This document shows, piece after piece, positions 1 to 34,390 of a stretch of DNA of 34,606 nt (position 1 is the stretch's first letter; the number at the start of each line of letters is the position of its first letter). The position numbers were made by a program, and so were the translations under genes. The stretch comes from Cyanosarcina radialis HA8281-LM2. GTDB lineage: Bacteria; Cyanobacteriota; Cyanobacteriia; Cyanobacteriales; CCAP-1448. The stretch spans positions 1 to 34,606 of the forward strand of contig JAHHHA010000051.1 of NCBI GenBank assembly GCA_019359615.1. The letters run 5' to 3'. Under the pieces are notes generated by a model, which did no database searches, was not told the DNA's origin, and was given only the letters and a program-made list of their open reading frames with translations.

Positions 1-114
1 GAGCATTTGAGAACTAGTTTAGCTAAAATTTTGAATGATTTGACTTCAGAAGCGATCGCTTCTTTGACGGGATGGCAATTTATTCGTGACGCACTATCTG
101 TAGCAAACATTTAG
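1..114 (+). CDS. C-terminal end of an unidentified protein (partial)
   Basis: The frame is open from the first base and ends at TAG 112-114, giving 37 residues that finish in LTGWQFIRDALSVANI. The GCGATCGC octamer inside it reads as SEAIAS, and the composition is like that of the neighbouring coding DNA. I do not recognise the family from this fragment. The start lies outside the window, so it could also be a chance open frame. Confidence 0.4.
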   Translation, partial: EHLRTSLAKILNDLTSEAIASLTGWQFIRDALSVANI

Positions 115-239
115 CGAATTCATATAAAAGGCTAAGCTGTTAATTAAGAATAGCGTAGCAGGATGGTATATCCTCAATCTCTGGTGCGGGTGATTTGGCA
201 TTGAACGGGGCGGTAGCCGTATGTTCTATGCCCCATACC

Positions 240-3200
240 CTATGCCCCATTCAGATACTCTTGAATCGCTTTGACCTCCAACGGCACAGATTGTAAAGAG
301 CGAATCGCAGAGGCAGTAGCCCTAGCACCAGCCAGGGTCGTCACCATTGGAATTTTGTAGGCTAAGGCAGTGCGGCGGATCAGGCGACCGTCGGCTTGGG
401 ATTCCTCACCAGAAGGGGTGATGATAATTAGCTGAATGCGCTCGTTTTTAATCGCATCGATGACGTGAGGACGACCTTCATGCAACTTCAATACTAGCTC
501 GACCTCTAGACCGTGGGCTTCTAGCACTTCCTTGGTGCCAATGGTGGAAACAATCTTAAAGCCTAGATCGATTAACTCCTTCACCAGCGGGACAGCGATC
601 GCTTTGTCGCGACCTTTGAGAGAAACGAATACCGTACCGGAAAGGGGCAAACGCTGACCTGCTCCTAATTGGGCTTTGGCAAACGCTTTACCGAAATCGG
701 TATCGATTCCCATCACCTCGCCAGTGGAACGCATTTCTGGCCCTAAGATCGTGTCGGTGCCAGGGAATTTCTCAAATGGCAGTACCGCTTCCTTCACCGC
801 CATGTGGGAGAACTGCGGCTCTTGAGTCAAGTTCAAAGATTCCAAAGTTTGACCGGACATAATTCGGGCCGCTAGTTTAGCTAAAGGTACGCCGCTGGCT
901 TTGGCCACGAAAGGCACGGTACGCGAAGCGCGGGGATTGGCTTCTAAGATGTAAACTTGGCGATCGCCATTTTGTCCGACTACGGCAAACTGAATGTTAA
1001 TCAGGCCGATGACGTTCAACGCTTGCGCTAACTTCACCGTCCAAGTGCGGATTTTATCTAAAGTGGCCGCGTCGAGAGAAGCAACTGGTAAAGAACAAGC
1101 CGAGTCGCCTGAGTGAATTCCAGCTTGTTCGATGTGTTCCATAATGCCGCCAATGACGACTTTACTAGTGCGATCGCATAGGGCATCGACATCGACTTCG
1201 ATCGCATTTTCCAAAAACTTATCGATTAAAATCGGATGGTCTGGTTCGATCTGAACGGCATATTGCATATACCGATTTAATTCCTCATCCGAATAAACGA
1301 TTTCCATCGCTCGCCCTCCCAACACGTAAGAAGGACGCACCAACACCGGATAGCCGATTTGACGGGCGGCGATCGCGGCATCTTCATAACTCCAAGCAAT
1401 CCCGTTAGGCGGTTGCTCGATTTCTAACTTCCGCAAAATTTTGGCGAATTCCTCTCGATTTTCGGCCATGTCGATCGATTTTGGCGAAGTACCCCAGATT
1501 TGAGGAGTTCGGAGTTCGGAATTGACTTTTGAGTTTTCCAAATACTCCTGCAACGGTACTGCCAACTTCAAGGGAGTTTGACCGCCAAATTGGACGATGA
1601 TGCCTTCGGGGTTTTCGGCTTCGATGATGTTGAGAACGTCTTCTTTGGTGAGAGGCTCGAAGTACAGGCGATCGCTGGTATCGTAATCGGTGGAAACTGT
1701 CTCTGGGTTAGAGTTGACCATGATCGTCTCAAACCCTTCTGCTTCCAAAGCGTAGGAAGCATGGCAGCAGCAGTAGTCGAATTCGATCCCTTGTCCGATG
1801 CGGTTGGGACCGCCACCTAGAATCATCACTTTGCGGCGATCGGAGGGAATAACTTCTGATTCTTCCTCATAAGTGGAATAGTAATAGGGCGTAAACGATT
1901 CAAATTCAGCGGCACAAGTATCTACTACCTTGTAGGCAGGAACTACACCTAATTGTTGGCGATATTGCCGCACTTCATCTTCAGTGGTTTTGGTGGCAAA
2001 GGCAATTTGGCGATCGCTAAACCCATATCGTTTCACTTCCCACATCCGCTCTTTAGAGATCTCGCTTAGGGGCGTGCGCTTGAGAAATTTTTCCATTTCC
2101 AAGATTTCCTGCATCTTGTCGAGGAACCAAGGATCGATCCCGGTTAACTCGTAGATTTCGGCGGCGCTCGTTCCCATCTGGAAGGCATGACGCACCGTAA
2201 AGATCCGTTCGGGATTTGGTGTTCGTAAAGCTGGGCGAATTTGATCTAAGGAAGGAATTTTTTCATAGCGATCGCATCCCCATCCCGCCCGTCCGGTTTC
2301 TAGGGATCTCAAGGCTTTTTGGAACGATTCGCAAAAGGTGCGCCCAATGGCCATGGCTTCTCCCACAGATTTCATCTGGGTGGTCAGCAGCGGCTCGCTT
2401 CCGGGAAACTTTTCAAACGCAAACCGAGGAATTTTGGTTACTACGTAGTCTATAGTCGGCTCGAATGAGGCTGGGGTCTTTTTGGTGATGTCGTTGGGAA
2501 TTTCATCTAGGGTGTAGCCGACAGCTAACTTAGCGGCAAACTTGGCAATGGGGAAACCTGTAGCTTTGGAGGCTAAAGCCGAACTGCGGCTGACGCGGGG
2601 GTTCATTTCAATCACGATTACGTCCCCAGCAACCGGATTGACGGCGAATTGAATGTTCGAGCCGCCCGTTTCTACCCCAATCTCGCGGATGATTTTAATC
2701 GAGGCATCGCGCAGTTGTTGGTACTCCTTATCGGTTAAGGTTTGGGCGGGAGCAACTGTAATCGAATCTCCTGTATGAATCCCCATCGGATCGATGTTTT
2801 CGATCGAGCAGATAATCACGACATTATCTGCCAGATCTCGCATCACTTCGAGTTCGTACTCTTTCCACCCCAGCAAGGATTTTTCGATCAAAATTTGAGA
2901 TACGGGCGAGGCATCAATCCCGCTTTGGGCGATTTCTTCAAATTCTTCTTGGTTGTAAGCAATACCGCCACCCGTGCCGCCGAGAGTAAAAGCAGGGCGA
3001 ATAATTAAAGGATACGAGCCAATTTCGCTGCCGATCGCTTTGGCTTCAGCCAGGGTGTTGGCAATTCCTGAAGGGCATACCGCCACGCCAATTCGTTGCA
3101 TGGCCTCTTTAAACAGCAATCTGTCTTCGGCTTTTTCGATCGCCTCTAGCTTGGCACCGATTAATTCGACCCCGTATTTCTCTAAAACTCCATTTTTAGC

Positions 3201-23940: not shown

Positions 23941-24505
23941 CTTCTCCCGATGCTGATGCTACGCATACAGTGCGGGACTTCCCGCCTAATAGTTAAATTT
24001 TTCTGTCAAAACCAGCACCTTTTCGGATGTGCGTCAATACTGAAAGTAAGCAACATCTATTTGATATATGTGGCTCGACCAAAACAGAGATTTTGCTGTT
24101 TGTCCTGTGAATTGCCACCCGAAGGAGAACGGTGTCAAGGTAGCAAGTGGTCTGGAATAACAAAAGCTATAAGCAAACAAGCTATAACGCCCGGTTGAGT
24201 TTCAGTTTTAGTGGTGTAGGGTTTTTACCGTTTCCCCTACTCTGCGACCGCTGAAGGGATTGTGAAACCATCCACCAGAACAGTCTGAGGCGCTCGACAC
24301 GTTATCAATCGACTCTTAACCGGGTTCTCTTTCTTGAGGCGGAAGAGTACGATCTTACCCGTCAAAGCGGCGGATCGCCAGAAATTATCAATGCAGTTCT
24401 AGAACTGCCCATTAGTTTAAAGTCCAGTAAGGAGCGATCGCACCCCAATGAATTCTGACAAAAAAGGGCGATCGCTCCGCTCTCGTGTGGCAAAAAACTT
24501 CCCAT
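23941..24505. other. Gene-poor stretch with a possible gene remnant
   Basis: This 565-bp stretch has no recognisable gene. A coding-like open frame without a start codon runs from 24255 to TGA 24456-24458 on the plus strand (…RYQSTLNRVLFLEAEEYDL…SPEIINAVLELPISL). It could be the eroded end of a gene. The left part (23950-24200) carries ordinary AT-balanced sequence with GTGCGGGACTTCCCGC, a small palindrome, at about 23970-23985. HIP1 sites lie at 24435 and 24468. Confidence 0.4.
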
Positions 24506-29247: not shown

Positions 29248-29826
29248 TCAGGCATCAACCCTCGGCTTTCCTGGTTTTAGCCAATCAAAAAGCTGGGATA
29301 CTGTCAGATCTAAATCTAAAAAATCTGGTACTGGTAGGCGATCGCTACCTCTCATTTCTAATGGTTGTTGTCCTGGCAGAAATACCAACACTAACCGCTC
29401 GTTGGGAGCCAGGAACCAACCTAACTTAGTGCCACGATCTAAACAGTGCAGGATGTTACTGATGACGTTGGTGGCGTTCTGGTCGGGGGAGATAATTTCA
29501 ATTACCCAATCTGTAGGAACGGCAAAAGTATTTTCAACTTCACCATTAACATCGAAAGGTATTCTTTCCCAGGTAAATACACTCACATCAGGGACGATCG
29601 ATCGCCCGCCAAAGGTACAGCGCAGTTCGGGAAAAGCTAAGGCGATTTCTTGTGGTTCGGCTATTTGGTTAACAACATCGCATAGTTTGAATTGCAGTCG
29701 AGAATGTTTGCCTTGAGGCATAGGTTTTTGATAGATGCGATTGTCAATAAATTCGCTAGCTGGTTTCGTTTCTGGCAGTTGCAGAAACTCGGTTAAAGTT
29801 ATAGATTTATCGATCGTACTTGTCAT
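29248..29826 (-). CDS. Uma2 family protein (DUF820, PD-(D/E)XK nuclease fold), copy 1
   Basis: The 192-residue protein has the usual Uma2 arrangement: ITLTEFLQLPETKPASEFIDNRIY, GKHSRLQFKLCDVV, the catalytic-type VPDVSVF (PD) and WVIEIISPDQNA (E-x-x-S), and GWFLAPNERLVLVFLPG. These proteins have a restriction-endonuclease fold and are highly amplified in cyanobacteria; their biological role is unsettled. The catalytic Asp and Glu are present, but the lysine that normally follows the second motif is not obvious in EIISPDQ, as is usual for this family. The gene appears monocistronic. Confidence 0.9.
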   Translation of the reverse strand: MTSTIDKSITLTEFLQLPETKPASEFIDNRIYQKPMPQGKHSRLQFKLCDVVNQIAEPQEIALAFPELRCTFGGRSIVPDVSVFTWERIPFDVNGEVENTFAVPTDWVIEIISPDQNATNVISNILHCLDRGTKLGWFLAPNERLVLVFLPGQQPLEMRGSDRLPVPDFLDLDLTVSQLFDWLKPGKPRVDA

Positions 29827-29917: not shown

Positions 29918-30160
29918 CTAACTTGCCTCCGTTGGTGCAGCCCCGACTTTGCTCTTCGTTTTGGCTTGCCAAACTACCCTGAATTGCTCTGAATTTAGAG
30001 TACATATAGCCGTTGTTTCTCCATATTGATTCGCAAACTCTACTTCGTACTTACCACCGTTAAAACACTCTACAATAGCTCCCTGCTCTCCTACACAAAG
30101 ATTAGACTCAGGCAAATCTACTAACAACTCAACTACATCAAATAACTCTGGTTTCATCAC
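29918..30160 (-). CDS. DUF4926 domain protein, second gene of an overlapping pair
   Basis: This 80-residue protein consists of one DUF4926 domain: PELFDVVELLVDLPESNLCVGEQGAIVEC, GGKYEVEFANQYGETTAICTL and EQFRVVWQAK. This is a small SH3-like beta barrel. The ATG at 30160 overlaps the last 4 nt of the DUF6883 gene (ATGA-type junction), so the two are translationally coupled. Small DUF4926 proteins are often the second gene beside a larger DUF partner in cyanobacteria, which resembles an antitoxin or immunity gene, but this role is an inference. Confidence 0.88.
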   Translation of the reverse strand: MMKPELFDVVELLVDLPESNLCVGEQGAIVECFNGGKYEVEFANQYGETTAICTLNSEQFRVVWQAKTKSKVGAAPTEAS

Positions 30161-30507
30161 TGCTTTTTCCTTACATATAGCGTTACTAATCTAGCTACGT
30201 CACTTCCAGGAGCTACTATCCAACCAGTGCGAACAATTTCTTTCTGCTCTTCCTCCGATCCTTGAACTTCCAAATCTACCTGGTAGCGTTGCCCATATTC
30301 ATCTGTACGCTGTAAAATAGCTTCACCTTCTAGAGCTACAGCTAAAATCTGTGCCATTAGAGCTTCGTAATTATCTTTGGTAAAACCAAGATAAAGCTGA
30401 AACATAACAGCTTTATCGGCACCTTTGGGGTTGTCGGAGTTGAGGGCATATTCTGTTAGCTTGCGTGGCTCGATGATAACTCTGTTGACAATATCTCCTA
30501 GCTTCAT
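30157..30507 (-). CDS. DUF6883 domain protein, first gene of an overlapping pair
   Basis: The 116-residue protein has the DUF6883 pattern. IIEPRKLTEYALNSDNPKGADKAVMFQLYLGFTKDNYEALMAQI is the N-terminal block. GQRYQVDLEVQG comes next, and TGWIVAPGSDVARLVTLYVRK is the C-terminal block. The K-A-x-x-F and G-W-x-x-x-P-G-x-D-x-x-R-L-V-T signature resembles domains seen in toxin systems, where the family is also found fused to polymorphic toxins. It is transcribed ahead of DUF4926 with a 4-nt overlap. Whether it is a toxin is unproven. Confidence 0.85.
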   Translation of the reverse strand: MKLGDIVNRVIIEPRKLTEYALNSDNPKGADKAVMFQLYLGFTKDNYEALMAQILAVALEGEAILQRTDEYGQRYQVDLEVQGSEEEQKEIVRTGWIVAPGSDVARLVTLYVRKKQ

Positions 30508-30624
30508 GTCCGATTATGACATTTTGATTTTAGACTCTGAATACAGACTGCTTTGGTGTAGCTGCGATTTACAATCTTAACTATTTTAATTATGAGCGAT
30601 CGCTTTTCCTCGATGAAGTCACTG

Positions 30625-30668
30625 CCGCGCAGGCGGACTTTGATTGTATACCTGCGGTTTCAACCGCC
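30625..30668 (+). repeat. Compound palindromic dispersed repeat, copy 2
   Basis: Same layout as copy 1: CCGCGCAGGCGGACTT, then TGATTGTATACCT, then GCGGTTTCAACCGCC. The left arm of the first palindrome is altered (ACTGCCGC for AGTCCGC), so that hairpin is partly eroded here. It lies in the 282-bp spacer between nfu and DUF6883, which contains no gene I can support. Confidence 0.8.
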
Positions 30669-30749
30669 ACACTATGATAATCGGATTTGGTTTTATCAAG
30701 CAAAAGGCGATCGCACCAGTTTTTGCACCAGCACAGATCGCCTTAGATT

Positions 30750-30778
30750 GAAAAAGAGACGTTGCAGTGCAACGTCTG
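30750..30778 (-). terminator. Intrinsic terminator of nfu formed by a dispersed palindrome
   Basis: On the minus strand, a hairpin AGACGTTGCA-C-TGCAACGTCT (10-bp arms) lies about 13 nt after the nfu stop and is immediately followed by CTTTTTC. The hairpin core is shared with the repeat at 18961-18990, so a repeat copy seems to serve as the terminator. Confidence 0.65.
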
Positions 30779-31777: not shown

Positions 31778-31963
31778 AAAACTCTACTACTAATCAACAT
31801 CTCTAGTTTAGAAGCTTAGGAAGCGAGAAAACCCATGTCGTATTTTCCCGCCGCTGCACCGAACACCCAAAACCGATCTTAAACGCACCGCGATCGTTGC
31901 CTCTTAGATCGCAGTTTTCGATCGTTCCTTGGTGAGATTTACACAGATCGACTGCTTTACCCT

Positions 31964-32011
31964 GGCGGTTGAAACCGCAGCCTTGGCAAACAAAGTCCGC
32001 CTGCGCGGACT
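31964..32011 (-). repeat. Compound palindromic dispersed repeat, copy 3 (inverted)
   Basis: Read on the minus strand it is AGTCCGC-GCAG-GCGGACT, a short linker (TTGTTTGCCAAGGCT), then GCGGTTTCAACCGCC. Both hairpins are intact. It lies in the 330-bp spacer between DUF3386 and the phospholipase gene; no gene is seen there, although an open frame overlaps it by chance. Confidence 0.85.
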
Positions 32012-33625: not shown

Positions 33626-34390
33626 TCAGAGATTAGAGGGATCGATCCCCAGTTCCCGCAGCTTTGCAGCCAAGCGTTCAGCCCGTTGTTTTTCTTGCTC
33701 GGCCCGCTGTTTTTCTTGCTCGGCCCGTTGCTGGGCAGCTTCTTCGGGGAGTAACACCAAATCTCCGTCGGAGGTATAAAACCTCAGCCACGAGCAGCTT
33801 CCTGTTATTGGTTCGCGATCGATCGCGCCTTCCCAGGTTCCCAACCAGAGTCCCAGGGTTTCGCACCAGAGCCAGCCGCGCTCGCTCGGATTCAAGGGTT
33901 GATAGCCACGAGCTAAATCTAGTCGCCAACCTGCCAGGGAATTAGGATCGAAGGGATCGAAGACGAAATAATCGGGTGTCCGAAAAACTTGCTCGTAGAG
34001 GTCTTTTTTGGCTCCTCGATCGATCGCTGCCGTGCTAGGGGAGAGAAGTTCGATAATCGCATCGGGATAGCGACCGGATTCTTCCCAAACCACCCAACCT
34101 TGCCGCTCTCGATTCGCTTCCACCCCCAGGACGGCAAAAAAGTCGGGACCCCTAAAGTCGCGGTTCATGGCTTGATGGCGGCTGTAGTAGACAAACATAT
34201 TGCCGCCTACGAAGCTGTCGGGGCGAGGTCGAAGCACTTGCTGCGCTGAGCGAATCAGCACGTTCATCGCGATCCGATGACGATTGCTTTCCAAGGGTTC
34301 TCCATCGTCAAAAATTAAGTCAGTGGGAGGGGATGGAACTTCCCAGCCTGGTAGCTCAGTCTGGAGATTTAGGGCAGTCTCCGGCACCAT
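33626..34390 (-). CDS. Uma2 family protein with charged coiled-coil tail, copy 2
   Basis: The protein has 254 residues. The Uma2 nuclease-fold core is present: FVGGNMFVYYSRHQAMNRDFRGPDFFAVLG and the IIELLSPSTAAIDRGAKKDLYEQVF block, which carries E, S and K residues typical of this fold. A beta-rich part (WLRFYTSDGDLVLLPEE) follows, then a coiled coil with repeated QRAEQEK units (about 220-245) and the usual ending ELGIDPSNL. This longer form is typical in cyanobacteria; its role is unsettled. It is unrelated in detail to the shorter Uma2 at 29248, so the two are paralogues and not a recent duplication. Confidence 0.9.
   Translation of the reverse strand: MVPETALNLQTELPGWEVPSPPTDLIFDDGEPLESNRHRIAMNVLIRSAQQVLRPRPDSFVGGNMFVYYSRHQAMNRDFRGPDFFAVLGVEANRERQGWVVWEESGRYPDAIIELLSPSTAAIDRGAKKDLYEQVFRTPDYFVFDPFDPNSLAGWRLDLARGYQPLNPSERGWLWCETLGLWLGTWEGAIDREPITGSCSWLRFYTSDGDLVLLPEEAAQQRAEQEKQRAEQEKQRAERLAAKLRELGIDPSNL

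What the first reader, a model, noticed from the sequence alone, without database searches (positions are those of the whole stretch)
29918..30507. DUF6883-DUF4926 overlapping pair as a candidate toxin-antitoxin-like module
Two small genes overlap by 4 nt with the larger first, and DUF6883 is a family known from toxin contexts. DUF4926 is a small SH3-like barrel often found as a second gene. The neighbouring Uma2 gene and the repeats fit an accessory area. Neither has an established function.
Basis: partly seen in the sequence, partly recalled or inferred. Interest (0 to 1): 0.5.

Follow-up and report, generated by a model that had tools for sequence, protein, structure and literature searches.

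The report
Predicted RNase toxin and its antitoxin
Two small neighbouring genes in what appears to be a cyanobacterium look like a poison-and-antidote pair: the first is predicted to cut RNA, probably transfer RNA, the second to block it, and the same pair of domains is found in many bacteria, including at the tips of toxins that bacteria fire at each other.

Summary
In detail: 30157-30507 (-) is DUF6883 and 29918-30160 (-) DUF4926, overlapping by 4 nt (GTG start) or 1 nt (ATG). The pairing is real: of 146 DUF6883 rows tallied from a capped list over 244 genomes of the phylum, 140 have DUF4926 beside them (downstream, same strand, in all but one); the other 6 are broken fragments. DUF4926 alone is common. 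Elsewhere DUF6883 is the C-terminal tip of LXG, filamentous-haemagglutinin, Hcp, PrsW and MuF proteins, mostly followed by DUF4926. A Subdoligranulum plasmid carries the pair as an orphan cassette behind a repeated linker, as polymorphic toxins do. The predicted DUF6883 structure (pLDDT 95.9) best matches the tRNase toxin CdiA-CT Kp342 (Z 10.9), a BECR-fold RNase; its near-invariant K16, Y20 and T109 appear to correspond to the Lys-Tyr-Thr triad. DUF4926 is a small, acidic SH3-like barrel. The pair, with a Uma2 gene, sits at a site that is empty in five relatives. Best reading: a standalone RNase toxin-antitoxin module built from the same parts as a polymorphic-toxin tip and its immunity protein. 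RNase activity and neutralisation are untested; Asn replaces the usual His26 here.

The parts
30157..30507 (-). DUF6883 gene, 116 aa: predicted BECR-fold RNase toxin. K16, Y20 and T109 (with R106) are the proposed active site. Position 26, His in most relatives, is Asn here.
   Evidence: PF21814 E 3.7e-40; AF2 pLDDT 95.9; best folds 6cp9 Z 10.9 and 6cp8 Z 8.2; conservation
29918..30160 (-). DUF4926 gene, 80 aa (GTG start) or 79 aa (ATG start at 30157): predicted SH3-like, acidic antitoxin/immunity protein
   Evidence: PF16277 E 4.8e-26; AF2 pLDDT 89.4, strands only; SH3/Tudor-type matches; net charge -6
30157..30160 (-). Overlap of the toxin stop TGA with the DUF4926 GTG start (the ATG start would overlap by 1 nt); suggests translational coupling (inference)
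   Evidence: sequence
29248..29826 (-). Uma2-family gene downstream of the pair, absent together with it from the empty sites; no functional link shown
   Evidence: PF05685 E 5.3e-28; not found at the site in five relatives
30757..30777 (-). Terminator-like hairpin after the NifU gene, which may separate it from the pair's transcript
   Evidence: consensus scan only
30513..30541 (-). Promoter-like site with TG before the second hexamer, just upstream of the DUF6883 gene; not above chance
   Evidence: consensus scan, 3 sites found in the region against 3.6 expected

Best explanation
The pair is a two-gene toxin-antitoxin-like module. The first gene encodes a small BECR-fold ribonuclease similar in fold to the tRNA-cleaving CDI toxins CdiA-CT Kp342 and EC3006, and most likely cuts tRNA with a Lys16-Tyr20-Thr109 active site helped by Arg106. 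The second gene, probably translationally coupled to it, encodes an acidic SH3-like barrel that binds the toxin and keeps it inactive, probably by covering the RNA-binding face. The same toxin/antidote domains serve as exchangeable tips and immunity proteins of polymorphic toxins in several phyla; in the window's phylum the survey found mostly the standalone form, here inserted with a Uma2 gene between NifU and a GH57 gene. Shown here: adjacency, order, asymmetric loss, domain architectures, predicted folds, conserved residues, an empty site in relatives. Inferred: RNase activity, tRNA as target, neutralisation by binding, and the benefit to the cell.
For: (1) Pairing: 95 of 146 DUF6883 rows have a Pfam-level DUF4926 within 1 kb, 94 of them downstream on the same strand. 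With a wider profile 45 of the other 51 also have one downstream; the 6 exceptions are partial or frame-broken DUF6883. (2) Asymmetric loss: of 55 loci with DUF4926 but no Pfam-level DUF6883 partner, 49 show no DUF6883 trace; in 41 of these the DUF4926 match is near full length, in 8 partial. (3) Toxin tips: DUF6883 is C-terminal to MuF, LXG, Fil_haemagg_2 (three loci), Hcp and PrsW, and MuF on two viral contigs. DUF4926 follows in 37 of 39 genome-contig loci at E up to 1e-3 and 38 of 39 at E up to 0.01 (L190's DUF6883 was not recognised by the profile), and in 5 of 5 viral-contig loci, two of which are near copies of L068. (4) Cassette: in plasmid locus L068 a 66-83 bp segment, 92-97% identical, lies in the large gene, before DUF6883-DUF4926, and before a further cassette. 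(5) Fold: H-H-H-E-E-E-E, pLDDT 95.9; Foldseek's top four rows are 6cp9 chains; VIA Z 10.9 over 101 residues for 6cp9, 8.2 for 6cp8. (6) Residues: K16 82 of 83, Y20 83 of 83, T/S109 79 of 83, R/K106 74 of 83. The published triads are K157/Y160/T255 and K204/Y208/T330; the ends of the VIA ranges put K16 on 157 and 204, T109 on 255 and 330, R106 on 252, Y20 on 208. (7) Antidote character: DUF4926 core net negative in 88 of 88; distances of the two proteins correlate at r 0.72 over 146 pairs of fetched loci, maximum of 1000 shuffles 0.07. (8) Insertion: all five relatives that keep DUF3386-NifU-GH57 together lack Uma2, DUF4926 and DUF6883 between them.
Against: No activity was measured. Foldseek's best E-value is only 1.3e-3 and none is at or below 1e-3. 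The VIA tool warns that a best Z of 7 to 8 is usual for models without a clear match, so only 6cp9 stands well clear; 6cp8 (8.2) is borderline and BrnT and RelE (6.1-6.9) are within that range. Neither DUF6883 profile finds 6cp9 or 6cp8 by sequence up to E 10. VIA prints ranges, not residue pairs, so the triad mapping assumes no gap near the ends; Y20 would fall on 161 of Kp342, not 160. Asn replaces His at position 26, which is His in 20 of 20 aligned tips and in 52 of 83 of the survey alignment, so this copy may be weaker. The window's DUF6883 has net charge -3, and the family is only weakly basic (mean +1.1, positive in 62% of 94), odd for an RNA-binding protein. DUF4926's fold matches are unspecific. 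No recognised domain was found in the large gene of L068. The distance correlation is partly shared descent.
Confidence: 0.78

Rival explanations
1. The standalone pairs are not toxin-antitoxin modules but orphan toxin/immunity cassettes left from polymorphic toxins, kept mainly because the immunity gene protects against relatives' delivered toxins.
For: Orphan cassette at L068; many DUF4926 genes without a toxin; the same domain as a tip in other phyla.
Against: The window's gene begins at the domain boundary with its own start codon and has no delivery domain, and full-length toxin genes persist in many copies (9 matches, two of them pieces of one gene, in G131). The toxin family keeps its proposed catalytic residues.
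Confidence: 0.2
2. DUF4926 is the toxin (an SH3-like barrel such as CcdB/MazF, recalled) and DUF6883 the antitoxin.
For: Some known toxins have SH3-like folds (recalled); DUF4926 models as an SH3-like barrel.
Against: DUF6883, not DUF4926, is the C-terminal tip of delivered proteins; DUF4926 is found alone while, among the listed rows, full-length DUF6883 was not; DUF4926 shows little polar conservation (V9, G23, E40, G46).
Confidence: 0.04
3. DUF6883 is a BECR-fold toxin but cuts another RNA (mRNA on the ribosome like RelE, or rRNA) rather than tRNA.
For: BECR toxins vary in target; BrnT, RelE and HigB also match, more weakly.
Against: The closest matches are the two tRNA-Ile nucleases, and the Lys-Tyr-Thr pattern is theirs.
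Confidence: 0.3
4. The window's copy is catalytically weakened and serves as a benign or regulatory remnant.
For: Asn at position 26 in place of the usual His; net charge -3.
Against: The frame is open and full length, K16, Y20, R106, T109 and W96 are kept, and the Asn is shared by 8 other rows of 83, from several families of the order, so it is not a fresh lesion.
Confidence: 0.15

Closest known systems
CdiA-CT/CdiI of Klebsiella pneumoniae 342 (PDB 6CP9)
   Same: Fold (Z 10.9, rmsd 2.2 over 101 residues), Lys/Tyr/Thr/Arg pattern, a cognate immunity protein
   Different: No detectable sequence similarity; that toxin is the tip of a large secreted protein; its immunity protein is a mostly beta homodimer, whose relation to DUF4926 was not tested; stimulated by EF-Tu/EF-Ts, not tested here
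CdiA-CT/CdiI of E. coli 3006 (PDB 6CP8)
   Same: Fold (Z 8.2) and a Lys204-Tyr208-Thr330 triad with the same Lys-Tyr spacing of four
   Different: Extra helical subdomain and an all-helical immunity protein
RelBE, HigBA and BrnTA type II toxin-antitoxin modules
   Same: Standalone two-gene module with a BECR-fold toxin; HigBA and BrnTA also have the toxin first (recalled)
   Different: Weaker fold match (Z 3.5-6.9); their antitoxins carry DNA-binding domains (recalled), whereas only DUF4926 is recognised here
Polymorphic toxin tips with immunity proteins (LXG, CdiA/FHA, Hcp, PrsW, MuF)
   Same: The same two domains in the same order; an orphan cassette with a shared linker
   Different: The window's gene has no delivery domain
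YxiD-YxxD of Bacillus subtilis (Ntox50; PMC12700104, passages read)
   Same: BECR-fold tRNase with an immunity protein whose acidic loop covers the active site
   Different: Histidine active site, different Pfam family, Sm-like immunity protein

Membership tests
BECR-fold ribonucleases | N-terminal helical segment followed by a four-stranded meander sheet (definition in PMC3482391) | tested here: met
   H-H-H-E-E-E-E at pLDDT 95.9; best fold matches 6cp9 and 6cp8, then BrnT and RelE more weakly
BECR-fold ribonucleases | Conserved candidate catalytic residues | tested here: met
   K16 82 of 83, Y20 83 of 83, T/S109 79 of 83, R/K106 74 of 83
BECR-fold ribonucleases | Ribonuclease activity | not testable with these tools
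   needs an assay
CdiA-CT Kp342/EC3006-type tRNases | Lys-Tyr-Thr triad at structurally equivalent positions | tested here: inconclusive
   Ends of the VIA ranges put K16 and T109 on the triads of both toxins and Y20 on Y208 of EC3006, but Y20 on 161, not 160, of Kp342; residue pairs are not printed
CdiA-CT Kp342/EC3006-type tRNases | Detectable sequence homology | tested here: not met
   Profiles A3 and A7 find neither at E up to 10
Polymorphic toxin / immunity systems | Domain family occurs as C-terminal tip behind varied delivery modules, with an immunity gene downstream | tested here: met
   LXG, Fil_haemagg_2, Hcp, PrsW, MuF; DUF4926 downstream in 37 of 39 or 38 of 39 at a looser limit; not found after L067's MuF fusion
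Polymorphic toxin / immunity systems | Orphan cassettes sharing linker DNA with a full-length toxin | tested here: met
   L068: three copies of a 66-83 bp segment, 92-97% identical; the large gene itself has no Pfam match
Polymorphic toxin / immunity systems | Delivery domain on the window's own protein | tested here: not met
   116 aa, DUF6883 over residues 2-114
Type II toxin-antitoxin modules | Two small adjacent co-directional genes, kept together | tested here: met
   140 of 146 rows, the 6 exceptions broken
Type II toxin-antitoxin modules | Antitoxin with a DNA-binding domain (common, not universal; recalled) | tested here: inconclusive
   Pfam finds DUF4926 alone; SH3-like fold, no helix of four or more residues in the model; nucleic-acid binding by the barrel not excluded
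Type II toxin-antitoxin modules | Toxin stops growth; antitoxin binds and neutralises it | not testable with these tools
   needs expression and binding assays
Known anti-phage defence systems (PADLOC) | Match to a PADLOC model | tested here: not met
   0 families for both proteins at E up to 1

The most novel reading that the evidence does not exclude
DUF6883-DUF4926 is an undescribed toxin-antitoxin family in which a polymorphic-toxin tRNase tip and its SH3-barrel immunity protein live as a mobile standalone module, kept at up to about eight places per genome in what I take to be cyanobacteria, with an antitoxin lacking a classical DNA-binding domain, and serving as a tRNA-cleaving growth stop, for example during phage attack or as an addiction module.
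Probability: 0.4. Interest if true: 0.65.

Novelty: new variant of a known kind. Interest (0 to 1): 0.52.

Why it matters
It gives two domains of unknown function a concrete, testable role: one an RNase, probably tRNase, toxin; the other its antidote. It links a gene pair found in about a quarter of the phylum's genomes surveyed to the tips of toxins delivered by several secretion and phage routes, and names residues for a simple loss-of-function test. Genomes with many such pairs may hold a large, unrecognised store of toxins or of immunity to them. In the held open-licence library, searches for DUF6883, PF21814 and PF16277 found no paper, and one for DUF4926 found one.

Tried and rejected
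RelE as a second partner of DUF4926: a RelE/ParE-type gene lies just upstream of DUF4926 at L047, L110 and L059 (Pfam) and, judged by eye, at L048 and L224. At L047 and L110 another small gene, probably its own antitoxin (judged by eye), precedes it. I read the adjacency as incidental in toxin-antitoxin-rich stretches and do not use it as evidence. A BrnT gene near L094 and a PIN-domain gene before L236 fit the same picture.

A DUF6883 subfamily without DUF4926: the Pfam-level survey suggested this (51 rows unpaired), but the wider profile found a diverged DUF4926 in 45. That profile was itself trained on loci that included 21 of the 51, so the fair test is on loci fetched later: 24 of 30 (L191-L220, exceptions broken) and 37 or 38 of 39 (L152-L190).

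PADLOC and NCBIfam gave nothing at their cut-offs. Phage records had no tblastn match to either protein. Solved structures had no sequence match worth using. The promoter scan was no better than chance. Direction of evolution (tip to standalone or the reverse) was not settled: tips and several clades of the window's phylum mix on one side of an unrooted tree with few columns. No complex of the two proteins was predicted; no tool for it. At E up to 1e-3 no DUF4926 was found for the DUF6883 of L067, L070 and L175; at E up to 0.01 L175 has one.

One of the 95 pairs has DUF4926 upstream. The 55 DUF4926 loci are 54 of the 55 unpaired rows (G000:C57 left out; it holds a DUF6883 fragment) plus L007.

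Full report
What is there. The finding's coordinates are exact. On the minus strand a 116-aa DUF6883 gene (30157-30507, PF21814 E 3.7e-40) is followed by a DUF4926 gene (29918-30160, PF16277 E 4.8e-26). The junction is CAG-TGA-TG, so the overlap is 4 nt with the GTG start or 1 nt with the next ATG. A Uma2 gene lies 91 nt further downstream, and a NifU gene upstream is followed by a terminator-like hairpin. The window is one whole contig, C40, of genome G000. G000 is unnamed; that it is a cyanobacterium is my inference from its many GCGATCGC (HIP1-type) sites, gene content and a CyVA-1 RNA, and 'the phylum' below means that of G000.

Is the pair conserved? In 244 genomes of the phylum DUF6883 occurs in 63 and DUF4926 in 68; comparing the two lists by eye, 62 genomes have both. 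Among 146 DUF6883 rows and 150 DUF4926 rows tallied from capped lists, 95 DUF6883 rows have DUF4926 within 1 kb, 94 of them downstream on the same strand; 40 of the best 40 and 73 of the best 77 are paired. All 51 unpaired rows were then read: with a wider profile 45 have a diverged DUF4926 downstream, and the 6 without (L203, L209, L216, L217, L219, L220) are partial or frame-broken DUF6883. So among the listed rows no full-length, unbroken DUF6883 was found without DUF4926. The reverse is common: of 55 loci with DUF4926 but no Pfam-level DUF6883 beside it, 49 show no trace of DUF6883 within about 1.3-1.5 kb, 5 a fragment, and 1 lies beside another complete pair; of the 49, 41 DUF4926 matches cover 50 or more of 59 profile positions in one piece and 8 do not. 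This asymmetry is what a toxin and its antidote predict. Distances within the two families correlate at r 0.72 over 146 pairs of fetched loci, 113 of them from the phylum (maximum of 1000 shuffles 0.07), as expected of genes inherited together.

Where else the domains occur. Plasmids of Rubrobacter and Rahnella carry the pair. A genome-contig scan with two relatives from outside the phylum gave 39 loci from Bacillota, Pseudomonadota, Actinomycetota and others. DUF4926 lies just downstream in 37 at E up to 1e-3 and in 38 at E up to 0.01; in L190 the profile does not recognise DUF6883. Several of these DUF6883 copies are themselves broken or partial (L170, L186, L188, L189). Among ten proteins scanned, nine bore DUF6883, each time at the C-terminus; in front of it lay LXG (Lysinibacillus), filamentous-haemagglutinin repeats (Sebaldella and two Pseudomonas), Hcp (Citrobacter) or PrsW (Paenibacillus), and nothing recognised in three. 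MuF-DUF6883 fusions are on an Anoxybacillus plasmid with phage structural genes (no DUF4926 found there) and on two viral contigs. All 5 viral-contig loci have DUF4926 downstream, but L268 and L269 are about 99% identical to L068 over 4.7 kb, so they are not independent. On the Subdoligranulum plasmid (L068) a 66-83 bp segment recurs at 92-97% identity inside the large upstream gene, directly before DUF6883-DUF4926, and before one more cassette; the large gene itself has no Pfam match. LXG, FilH, T6SS, PrsW and MuF are listed delivery modules of polymorphic toxins, and recombination with standalone toxin cassettes is their described mark (PMC3482391, passages; MuF toxins: PMC5576092, abstract and outline).

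Fold and active site. AlphaFold2 with 83 sequences gives DUF6883 three helices and a four-stranded sheet at mean pLDDT 95.9. Foldseek's first four rows are chains of 6cp9, the CdiA-CT/CdiI complex of K. pneumoniae 342 (TM to the query 0.67-0.71, E 1.3e-3 to 3.0e-3). VIA-align gives Z 10.9 for 6cp9 (101 residues, 2.2 A), 8.2 for 6cp8, 6.9 for BrnT and 6.1 for an archaeal RelE; the tool warns that values below about 8 may mean only a common arrangement. Both CDI toxins are BECR-fold nucleases that cut tRNA-Ile(GAU), with triads Lys157-Tyr160-Thr255 and Lys204-Tyr208-Thr330 plus Arg and His (PMC9086364, Table 1 passages and section 14 part 1; PMC6851490, passages). In DUF6883 K16 (82 of 83), Y20 (83 of 83), W96 (83 of 83), T/S109 (79 of 83) and R/K106 (74 of 83) stand out. 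The ends of the aligned ranges (10..113 on 151..259; 8..114 on 196..335) put K16 on 157 and 204, T109 on 255 and 330, R106 on 252, and Y20 on 208 but on 161 rather than 160. This assumes no gap near the ends, as residue pairs are not printed. His26 is present in 20 of 20 aligned tips but is Asn in the window and 8 others of 83, and the window protein has net charge -3 while the family mean is +1.1; both speak for caution about its strength.

DUF4926. Its model is an SH3-like barrel of strands (pLDDT 89.4) with unspecific matches to SH3, Tudor and Pif1-type barrels. Its core is net negative in 88 of 88 partners examined. [quoted passage not shown] I infer the same here; nothing was tested.

Mobility. 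Of the 19 other genomes searched, five (G244, G005, G008, G062, G172) keep DUF3386 and GH57 close together; in all five NifU lies between them, and no Uma2, DUF4926 or DUF6883 is found there. The window pair therefore looks inserted, together with Uma2. In the tree its clade (11 rows, support 100/94) spans several families of the order, and the genome's second copy (L002) falls elsewhere on a long branch, which suggests, but does not prove, horizontal movement.

Verdict. As a class this is known (BECR toxins with cognate neutralisers); this family pair, its standalone form and its antidote fold were not found described in the papers searched (DUF6883, PF21814 and PF16277 none; DUF4926 one paper, seen only in the listing), a library that lacks most subscription journals.

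Noticed in passing
window 30625-30669 and 31963-32008: Inverted copies of a dispersed repeat flank NifU-DUF3386; the pattern has 8 matches in the genome with up to 3 mismatches, none for the reversed control.
   Followed up: partly
window 24076-24153 (+): CyVA-1 sRNA (RF02965), 65.7 bits against a gathering score of 41.4.
   Followed up: no
window 33626-34390 (-): A second Uma2-family gene, with a charged, repetitive C-terminus encoded by a 21-nt direct repeat.
   Followed up: no
G000:C21:232045-232219 (L007) and C57:990-1363 (L003): Broken copies elsewhere in the same genome: a frame-shifted DUF4926, and a truncated DUF6883 next to DUF4926.
   Followed up: partly
L037:1428-2117 and L125:1639-2292: DUF4926 continues in frame into a long C-terminal extension with an NQFG.GDNVAGDK motif, which I recall from cyanobacterial conflict proteins; a possible fused function.
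   Followed up: no
L070:2176-3711: Methylobacterium plasmid pMRAD03: DUF6883 lies inside a 511-aa protein with about 130 aa after it and no DUF4926 found; the domain may be used differently there.
   Followed up: no
L067:6359-6526: The MuF-DUF6883 fusion is followed by a 56-aa ORF without any family match above cut-off, possibly a different immunity protein.
   Followed up: no
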